From: Apostichopus japonicus
Lineage: Eukaryota; Echinodermata; Holothuroidea; Aspidochirotida; Stichopodidae
Direction of reading: 5' to 3'
DNA: 64,000 nt
Assembly (NCBI RefSeq): GCF_037975245.1
Contig: NC_092568.1
Coordinates: 10,811,501 to 10,875,500, forward strand
Under the pieces are notes generated by a model. That model saw only the letters and a list, made by a program, of their open reading frames with translations, had not been told where the DNA came from and made no database searches. Positions 9,401-12,400 of the stretch are shown here, in pieces; within the stretch, counting starts at the first letter, position 1, and the number at the start of each line of letters is the position of its first letter. Position numbers and translations under genes: made by a program.

Positions 9401-12400
9401 TTCTTGCAATACTTTTAGCTTGATGAAGGCTTTCAGATATTTCTTCCAATGCCCAATATTTTTTGTATTAATTTTTTTATCATTATTTTTTTTATTTTAC
9501 TTTTTTTTGCTGTTGTTAAGTCAGACAGTTCTGACAGTTTCAGTTATTTTGATTTGATCTGTTCGATATAGGTCTCAAATATGGTACAAGATTTCTCCAG
9601 CCCTTCTTTCGATCTTCTCATTGGTATCACATTAATGTTACAGTTTTTATGTTTTGAATTGATGTTTTGGGTACTTATTCTTGTAATTCTCTTCATTTTT
9701 GATACTGATCTTAATTGGGTAGTTTCAGCAATCATGTTCATTTTGAATTGATCTTTAGTTTACTTCTCCCAATTCTGTATATTGAATTCCATCTTTTGGT
9801 TACTTCACCCAATTCTTTAAAATGGATTTCATCTTTCAGATAGTGCTTCCAATTCTCTATATTGAATTCATCTTTTAGATAGTGCTTCCAATTCTCAATA
9901 TTGAATTCATCTTTAAGATGGTGCTTCAAATTCTCTATATTGACTTCATCTTTCAGATAGTGCATCCCATTCTCTTTATTGACTTCATCTTTCAGATAGT
10001 GCATCCCATTCTCTTTATTGACTTTGTCTTTCAGATAGTGCTTCCATTTCTCTATATTAACTTCATCTTTCAGATAGTGCTTCCAATTCTCTATATTGAC
10101 TTCATCTTTCAGATAGTGCATCCCATTCTCTTTATTGACTTTGTCTTTCAGATAGTGCTTCCAATTCTCTATATTGACTTCGTCTTTAAGATAGTGCTTC
10201 CAATTCTCAATATTGACTTCATCTTTAAAATAGTGCTTCCAATTCTCAATATTGACTTCATCTTTAAGAACGTGCTTCCAGTTCTCTATATTGACTTCAT
10301 CTTTAAGATAGTGCTTCCAATTTGCTATGTTGACTTCATCTTTAAGATATTGCTTCCATTTCTCAATACTGACTTGATCTTTAAGATAGTGCTTCCAATT
10401 CTCAATATTGACTTCATCTTTAAAATAGTGCTTCCAATTCTCAATATTGACTTCATCTTTAAGAACGTGCTTCCAGTTCTCTATATTGACTTCATCTTTA
10501 AGATAGTGCTTCCAATTTGCTATGTTGACTTCATCTTTAAGATAGTGCTTCCAATTCTCTATATTGACTTCATCTTTCAGATAGTGCTTCCAATTCTCTA
10601 TTTTGTCCCCGACGAGGGGGCCTACACCAAGAGGTACGAGGACACCATCGATGCCCTCTTCCAGATCTATCAGAGTCCGCAGTTATTGGCTTTCTGTCTT
10701 CTTTATCTCTTCTCCATTACATTTTATAATTACTGTGGACTGGCTGTCACTAAATCCCTCACAGGTTAGTGTTTAATAGTCGTTGACACAGTTAACATTT
10801 GAAAAGGAAGTTTGATAGAACTTCACGTTTAGCTTTAATTGCAGAGACTTTAAAAGTGAGGTGAAAGCATCACCTGTTGTTGAAATTCAATTAAACATTT
10901 ACATAATATTCTATTTTGAGAAAAGTAAAAAACAAACTCAAAAAAGTTGAGCTTTAACTTAGCTATGATGAAATTGTGACATTTTTGGAGGTGTGTTCTA
11001 TGGCAATGTACACAGTGGGGCCAAAAATGTTGTTAAAGCTCTGAATTTGTGGTACAAAATTGCTCAGATAAAATTTTACCTCTGTATTTATGTAAGGTTA
11101 TCAGTATATTGCTCCCCTCCCTCCCACTTCCCCACCCCCGTCCCTCCCAAATATGCTAGAAATTCAAATAATGGTCACTTGTGTTCAAATTTCAAAAAGC
11201 ATTTTACTGGGGGCAATCACAACAGTTTCCACACTAAGACATTTAATTGTCTGATTGAAACAACTTTCTTATCTGGATTCAATATAAATCCGAAATGGAT
11301 CTGATCTGCATCCAGTGTAAATTGCCCACAATTGAAATCCTACGTGAATATTATTCCCTGAGTTCATGTCAAGTTTTGTTTTGCACATTTTGATTGGTAA
11401 TTATTAGATAGTCTTATTTATTACGATTGACCTCCTTCAGTAAACCAATTCTCAAGTGACCTGAAGATTCTTCTATAACAGTCTCGTTGATTCTTGAAGA
11501 TCGACTAATCGTCTCTTTGACTAATTCCGAAGAAGAATTAGACTCCATTTGGGGGTATGGTATCTGAAATGGTTGCTTTAATATATTCGTAGGTCGCCAA
11601 GAAACAAGTACTGTATCTATAAGGGCAATATGGTAAAACTGCATTCCGTTTCATTTGCCAATCCATGGATCCAACCACCCTTCCCTCCCCCCATCACCCC
11701 ATCCCCTCCCTTCCCAAGTGCAGATAATATTATAGTACACTGCCCGTACCAGTAGAAAACTCCTGCCTCCAAGTAATGAAAAACAAAAAATAGAAAAGCT
11801 TGTTCTGCTCCTTTTAGGACCAATTAGTCAGCTTAACCCTTTTTTATGCAGACATACGACATAGTCTCTTTTCCGTTTGTATTTTGCAGCCGTTCATAGA
11901 ACACTAATAGATGCCTGCCGCACAATCGTCGTGTGGATCGTTGATATAACTATCTTTTACGCCTTTGGCCAGACGTTTGGAGAAGCCTTCAATACTACAT
12001 ACGGCCTAATACAGAGTAAGTGACCAAATCATAAACTGTATGATTATGTCATGGTTAAACCTGCTTGGAACAAACAGGAGAGATTGTAGGATTCACACAA
12101 TTTGCATTAAAAATTGTACCAAGCTCATTCCAGTTCCATTAAAGGCATTGAAGACTCGCCCCAAACTGCGTGCCGCGCTCTGAAAAGGTTAACTTTCCGT
12201 TGCTTGCAAGTGACGGTTTGTTCGTGTCGCTACAAAATGCAGACAGTAATGAAACGTGTTATCTTTTATCTAGACCTGAGATGTCCACGCTGCTATGTAC
12301 ACTGTGTTGTGGGTATTGACCGTAGCTGTATGTATTGACTGTACACTAGTGTCTAATTACCGATGGTAGCAAGCTGTGTGTGTATTTTCTGGGATCGATG

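What the first reader, a model, noticed from the sequence alone, without database searches (positions are those of the whole stretch)
9800..10620. A 3' splice site amplified 20-fold: 39-bp array built from the SLC35F6 intron/exon junction
Seen: the 39-bp unit straddles the real acceptor (20 nt intron end, 19 nt exon start) and is repeated in exact 39-nt register from 9839 to 10580. Minisatellites within introns are common; one whose unit is the splice acceptor itself, giving up to eight extra CAG/TAG acceptors upstream of the true one, is unusual. Inference: it could generate a family of isoforms or act as an acceptor decoy field.
Basis: partly seen in the sequence, partly recalled or inferred. 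Interest (0 to 1): 0.88.

Follow-up and report, generated by a model that had tools for sequence, protein, structure and literature searches.

The report
Tandem repeat copying a splice acceptor
In a gene of what is probably the Japanese sea cucumber, the short stretch of DNA where an intron ends and the next exon begins has been copied head to tail about twenty times, giving many spare splice sites; it is most likely a drifting repeat, but most of the spare sites would keep the reading frame, so RNA data could show whether the cell uses them.

Summary
A 39-bp tandem repeat straddles the intron/exon junction of an SLC35F6-like gene. Twenty acceptor positions lie in exact 39-nt register from 9839 to 10580; 18 of 20 keep AG and nine are CAG/TAG (eight upstream plus the real one). 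TRF gives 9743-10605; decayed copies reach back to about 9400.

Homology supports 10580 as the working acceptor: the joined exons align to a C11 paralogue, open through this point, with one single-residue gap near the junction. So the exon most likely seeded the array.

Thirty-nine nt is 13 codons. The exon frame is open from 9879, so 16 upstream AGs (of 18 register positions, 9878-10541) would add 13-234 residues without a stop; 9839 would give a stop after 12 codons. Changes among units show no purifying selection on the frame (23 distinct changes: 18 replacement, 4 silent, 1 stop). Sampled DNA is rich in such arrays.

Best reading: a near-neutral minisatellite grown across an acceptor, with 10580 the main site. 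The gene is a divergent paralogue, not the closest SLC35F6 relative. Arrays at splice junctions are known (IFI6 donors; human boundary repeats), so this is an acceptor-side variant of a known kind. Use of the extra sites is untested.

The parts
8573..8617 (+). Preceding exon, 45 nt (VVGMEGTFGFCLMVL), ends in phase 0 before gtaagt
   Evidence: aligned to paralogue
8618..10580 (+). Intron whose 3' end carries the array
   Evidence: GTAAGT at 8618, TTTCAG ending at 10580
9400..9461 (+). Decayed copies of the unit (about 1.5 units), the furthest upstream part detected
   Evidence: tile 9380-9549 scores 51; 0 of 2924 control tiles reach it; alignment
9627..9839 (+). Decayed, indel-bearing copies; clear from about 9743, borderline before that
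9840..10580 (+). 19 units of 39 nt in exact register upstream of the real exon
9876..9878 (+). TAG: acceptor-like end of the first in-register unit and the only stop in the exon frame between 9840 and 10763
9879..10764 (+). Open stretch in the exon frame, from just after that TAG to the exon's donor: 18 repeats of 13 residues, then the exon
10581..10605 (+). Start of the real exon that belongs to the repeat unit (21 nt exact, 25 nt with one mismatch)
10581..10764 (+). Exon of the SLC35F6-like gene, 184 nt, before donor GTTAGT

Best explanation
It is a minisatellite that arose when a 39-bp segment spanning the end of an intron and the start of the next exon was duplicated, then expanded into the intron by slippage or unequal exchange. 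Shown: the unit contains the real junction, copies keep a 39-nt register, and four consecutive units are identical to four others 195 nt further on, so a block was copied. Inferred: the repeats drift with little or no selection; the spliceosome mostly uses the last copy at 10580, because it gives the shortest exon and the nearest other CAG/TAG register site is 429 nt upstream; upstream copies are used rarely or not at all. If an upstream copy is used, the protein gains a multiple of 13 residues in a hydrophobic segment (9878 and the later AGs) or is cut short (9839).
For: Register and copies. The exon as source: the exons joined at 10580 align to a C11 paralogue whose open frame runs through this point, with one single-residue gap four residues after the junction and no repeat; the joined downstream exons read open to a stop. 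No coding constraint: 23 distinct changes among 19 units, 18 replacement, 4 silent, 1 stop, against 71-76% replacement, 21-26% silent and 2.6% stop expected; by codon position 10, 6, 7. Block copy: units 10191, 10230, 10269, 10308 are identical to 10386, 10425, 10464, 10503. More decay away from the exon. Arrays are common: 12 of 15-100 bp with at least 5 copies in 20 sampled 10-kb stretches, 6 in the window.
Against: No RNA evidence was available, so main use of 10580 is inferred. No indel occurs in the register zone, although the decayed zone has 8 indels to 52 mismatches; at that ratio 3.5 would be expected with 23 changes (P about 0.03), a weak sign of frame-keeping. The pyrimidine tract of the real site is no better than those of the copies (12 of 17 against 10-13 of 17), so position, the base at -3 and exon length are what favour it, and the -3 base does not set it apart from the seven upstream CAG sites.
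Confidence: 0.72

Rival explanations
1. Isoform series: several upstream copies are used at appreciable rates, giving proteins longer by 13, 26, 39 and more residues in one hydrophobic segment; allele length would change the mixture.
For: Among the 18 register positions 9878-10541, six are CAG, one TAG and nine AAG (AAG by difference); frame open from 9879 to 10764; no indels in the register zone.
Against: No excess of silent over replacement change. The nearest upstream CAG register site is 429 nt from the real one and would make a 613-nt exon. The repeats add hydrophobic residues (mean hydropathy 1.71) with an acidic residue in 17 of 18 units, at a place where the paralogue has no such insertion. 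A unit open in frame arises by chance perhaps one time in four (inference).
Confidence: 0.15
2. The array is a regulatory brake: use of 9839, or slow recognition of many weak acceptors, yields transcripts with an early stop or retained intron, lowering expression.
For: The site at 9839 is CAG, the first register acceptor from the 5' side, and its frame stops after 12 codons.
Against: Of 19 upstream register positions only this one leads to a stop; its pyrimidine tract is the poorest of the register set (10 of 17); no sign of preservation was seen.
Confidence: 0.06
3. The array is an exon: it is translated constitutively as 18 repeats of 13 residues.
For: Open frame of 295 codons from 9879 to 10764.
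Against: Changes are not biased to silent sites; the paralogue has no such insertion; Pfam finds no family in it at E up to 1; the minus strand is open for 314 codons, so openness comes from the unit.
Confidence: 0.04
4. Assembly artefact.
For: Nothing beyond the repetitive nature.
Against: Most units differ from their neighbours, the register array is under 1 kb, and the published assembly matching in size is from PacBio HiFi reads.
Confidence: 0.03

Closest known systems
Human IFI6 (6-16) minisatellite providing multiple splice donor sites (Turri, Cuin and Porter 1995; paper not held; seen as a citation and one sentence in PMC4526556, and as a citation in PMC2572611)
   Same: A minisatellite whose repeat unit carries a splice site of the host gene, so more than one copy can act as a site.
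   Different: There the sites are donors and three mRNA species are mentioned; here they are acceptors and no RNA has been examined.
Internal tandem repeats at exon-intron boundaries in human duplicated genes (PMC2812944; abstract and passages seen; its supplementary table of introns not seen)
   Same: Tandem repeats that lie at exon-intron boundaries and alter splicing; 27 intron modifications reported.
   Different: Those come with RNA support and unit-number variation between paralogues; here one array and no RNA. Whether any of the 27 multiplies an acceptor I could not see.
Introns from tandem duplication (Lehmann et al., PMC2891723, passages seen; Zhuo et al. 2007 not held, seen as a citation)
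   Same: Tandem duplication multiplies splice signals; lengths that are multiples of three allow alternatives.
   Different: There a duplicated AG/GY proto-splice site makes a new intron; here no GTRAG donor motif lies in 9400-10580, so only alternative acceptors are expected.
TERT intron 6 VNTR6-1, 38-bp unit (PMC11830802, title and start of abstract seen)
   Same: A minisatellite of near-equal unit length in an intron, in a paper on TERT splicing.
   Different: The abstract places it within the intron; nothing seen there says that its unit spans a splice junction.

Membership tests
Minisatellite (tandem array of 10-100 bp units) | Head-to-tail copies of one unit | tested here: met
Minisatellite (tandem array of 10-100 bp units) | Copy-number variation between individuals | not testable with these tools
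   one assembly only; the internal block copy suggests past change
Splice-site minisatellite (IFI6 type) | The units carry a splice site of the gene | tested here: met
   18 of 20 register positions end in AG, 9 of 20 in CAG/TAG
Splice-site minisatellite (IFI6 type) | More than one copy is used in transcripts | not testable with these tools
   no RNA data at hand
Intron gain by tandem duplication | Units carry a donor as well as an acceptor | tested here: not met
   no GTRAG motif in 9400-10580; the GT sites of 9840-10580 listed; weaker donors not scored
Coding tandem repeat | Open frame through the repeats | tested here: met
   9879-10764 open, but the minus strand is open too
Coding tandem repeat | Purifying selection on the frame | tested here: inconclusive
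   18 replacement, 4 silent, 1 stop among 23 changes speak against it; absence of indels, P about 0.03, is a weak counter-sign
SLC35F6 orthologue | Closest relative of SLC35F6 in its genome | tested here: not met
   blastp against human SLC35F6 as recalled: C11 loci 54% and 53% (154 and 152 bits), window exons 36% (95.9 bits); loci

The most novel reading that the evidence does not exclude
A splice acceptor has been turned into a copy-number dial: a ladder of in-frame acceptors, each adding 13 residues to a hydrophobic segment of a transporter-like protein, with array length and the CAG/AAG make-up of units setting the mixture of protein lengths in each individual.
Probability: 0.08. Interest if true: 0.75.

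Novelty: new variant of a known kind. Interest (0 to 1): 0.36.

Why it matters
If the copies are unused, this is a natural test of how the spliceosome picks one acceptor beside 17 upstream near-copies of it (distance, base at -3, exon length). If they are used, it would be a variable-length protein series made by splicing from a minisatellite. Either way one deep RNA data set decides it.

Tried and rejected
Coding exon: judged unlikely on the replacement/silent count and the paralogue. The open frame as evidence of coding: rejected, since 2.6% of single changes to the unit make a stop, so about 0.6 stops are expected among 23 changes (by hand) and one was seen. The count takes the consensus as ancestor, counts each derived base once, and classes the two double changes (positions 2+3 and 16+17) as single changes; the codons present are AAC and TGC. 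Counted as one event each, both replacements, the tally is 17 replacement, 3 silent, 1 stop of 21 (by hand). The AG itself was not tested formally: its two sites hold one distinct change, against 1.2 if changes were even (23 over 39 sites, by hand).

A further copy elsewhere in the genome: a DNA search with a dimer of the unit gave 11 matches, all within this array (the tool calls its counts lower bounds). Family searches: NCBIfam 0 families for array and exon, PDB 0 sequences for the exon, Pfam a sub-threshold AGTRAP match (E 0.093) for the joined protein and none for the array. Orthologous introns of other echinoderms: I had no collection of animal genomes to search, and metagenome scans are capped at zero. 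Extension of the array between 9470 and 9760 is borderline (3, 47, 9 and 47 of 2924 control tiles reach the scores; 13 and 62 of 200 shuffles). A genome-specific splice-site matrix was not built; sites were compared by pyrimidine count and the base at -3. The rows for 9521 and 9525 are one base off; one search gives 9520 and 9524 (14 and 11 of 17).

Literature: seven searches on the subject (searches are eight with answers; others returned none) listed no title or abstract start that describes an acceptor-carrying minisatellite. This covers only the open-licence library, and the supplementary intron table of PMC2812944 was not seen. Two papers, of which I saw passages, were not relevant (PMC5628181; PMC7536079).

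Full report
The array. Reading 8400-11000 and running TRF shows a 39-bp tandem array at 9743-10605, 22.1 copies. Counted back from the real exon start at 10581, 20 acceptor positions fall in exact register down to 9839. AG is present at 18 of 20; positions 10229 and 10424 read AAA. CAG or TAG stands at nine of 20: 9839, 9878, 9956, 9995, 10034, 10073, 10112, 10151 and 10580. The other nine are AAG. The array is far above chance: wrap-around score 1317 against 17-26 in ten shuffles. Upstream of 9840 copies are decayed and carry indels. A separate remnant lies at 9400-9461 (tile score 51, 0 of 2924 control tiles as high); the stretch between is borderline.

The junction. The exon 10581-10764 joined to the preceding exon 8573-8617 reads VVGMEGTFGFCLMVL-IVLPILYFVPDEG. 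Four window exons joined (8573-8617, 10581-10764, 11890-12015, 13334-13536) read open to a stop, with GT/AG at the junctions printed. Compared with a paralogue on contig C11 the protein aligns straight through the junction, with one single-residue gap four residues after it (34% identity over 138 columns, 16 gap positions in all). There an open frame of 175 codons runs through this point, so the C11 gene seems to have no intron here. I take 10580 as the working acceptor by homology, and the first 21-25 nt of the exon as old coding sequence. The array was then copied from the junction, not the exon from the array (inference). The pattern TATATTG (10560-10566) resembles TATTTTG in the exon (10599-10605), 39 nt on; a slip between such short repeats could have started it (inference).

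Which gene. Against human SLC35F6 as I recall it, two C11 loci score 54% and 53% identity (154 and 152 bits), the window exons 36% (95.9 bits). SLC35F6-like is the safer name. Other exons were placed by weak tblastn matches and reading: about 420 and about 1680-1774, with more upstream of the window.

Which organism. Mitochondrial contig C35 reads through COX1 under the echinoderm code, with AAA giving the N of the STNHKDIG stretch (that this stretch is conserved is recalled). The genome has 671,581,487 bases in 35 contigs. The published Apostichopus japonicus assembly has 671,643,915 bases in 34 scaffolds, from HiFi reads (passages of PMC10344927). I take it to be that species, probably that assembly; this is inference.

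Reading frame. Thirty-nine nt is 13 codons, and the exon frame is open from 9879 to the donor. Register positions 9878 to 10541 (18 positions, 16 with AG) would add 13 to 234 residues; 9839 would meet a stop after 12 codons. The repeats encode a hydrophobic peptide (IVLPILYIDFIFQ or close; mean hydropathy 1.71 over 234 residues). The minus strand is open as well, for 314 codons, so openness is a property of the unit.

Selection. Among 19 upstream units I counted 23 distinct derived bases. Eighteen are replacements, 4 silent, 1 a stop; random change would give 71-76%, 21-26% and 2.6%. Codon positions 1, 2, 3 hold 10, 6 and 7. The first 22 sites of the unit (exon side) hold 14 changes and the other 17 hold 9. 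There is no sign of selection on the frame in these counts. The contrary hint is that the register zone has no indel, where 3.5 would be expected from the decayed zone's ratio (8 indels, 52 mismatches; P about 0.03); homogenisation of units could also explain this.

Growth. Units 10191, 10230, 10269 and 10308 are identical to 10386, 10425, 10464 and 10503; the next pair (10347, 10542) differs at 6 of 39 sites. So a block of units was duplicated at 195-nt spacing. The ten positions 10190-10541 all have A at -3, partly through that block copy, so the run of weak sites next to the real acceptor need not reflect selection.

Splicing. The register sites have like pyrimidine content (10-13 of 17; real site 12 of 17). 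Four other acceptors of this gene have 9 (1679), 15 (8572), 13 (11889) and 16 (13333) of 17, so the array's sites are within the gene's range. The best branch-point match per unit is TTGAC, 13 nt before the AG, which is short by what I recall of animal introns. No GTRAG donor lies in 9400-10580, so no extra introns are expected. That 10580 is the main site rests on homology, the shortest exon (184 nt) and its CAG, with the nearest other CAG/TAG register site 429 nt upstream. It is inferred, not shown.

How unusual. Twelve arrays of 15-100 bp with at least five copies lie in 200 kb taken at fixed steps from two contigs (20 of 20 stretches used, one of them satellite from end to end), and 6 in the window. 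That is some 60 per Mb. With an assumed 150,000 acceptors, random placement of 40,000 arrays of 39-bp units would put a few hundred across acceptors if selection did not remove them. This is order of magnitude only.

Prior knowledge. Minisatellites that carry splice sites are known: IFI6 donors (citation and one sentence) and repeats at human exon-intron boundaries (PMC2812944, abstract and passages). I saw no acceptor example of this form in the searches named in Tried and rejected. I file it as a new variant of a known kind, and as most likely near-neutral.

Noticed in passing
7556-7759 and 12296-12499: A 204-nt inverted repeat, 93% complementary, 4536 nt apart, flanks the array-bearing intron and its exon; it looks like a dispersed element and could pair in the pre-mRNA.
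   Followed up: partly
L014 and L015 (contig C11, about 10.13 Mb and 6.73 Mb): Two very similar copies of the SLC35F6-type gene 3.4 Mb apart (166 of 173 residues the same); flanking open frames look alike too: recent duplication or an assembly duplicate.
   Followed up: partly
L015:2090-3175: The stretch beside the C11 SLC35F6-type exon looks by eye like a tandem array open in several frames (THAYVTTCSMFLL-like translations); not run through a repeat finder.
   Followed up: no
9738-10682, minus strand: Open frame of 314 codons antisense to the array with repeats like ENWKHYLKDEVNI; probably a by-product of the unit.
   Followed up: partly
23433-24381 and 31254-35189: Large arrays (53 bp x 17.9, 96% matches; 129- and 146-bp units in alternating blocks) in the same window.
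   Followed up: no
G000:C29:14745-16086 and 30842-31219: A second contig carries COX1 pieces: mitochondrial sequence duplicated in the assembly or nuclear mitochondrial DNA.
   Followed up: no
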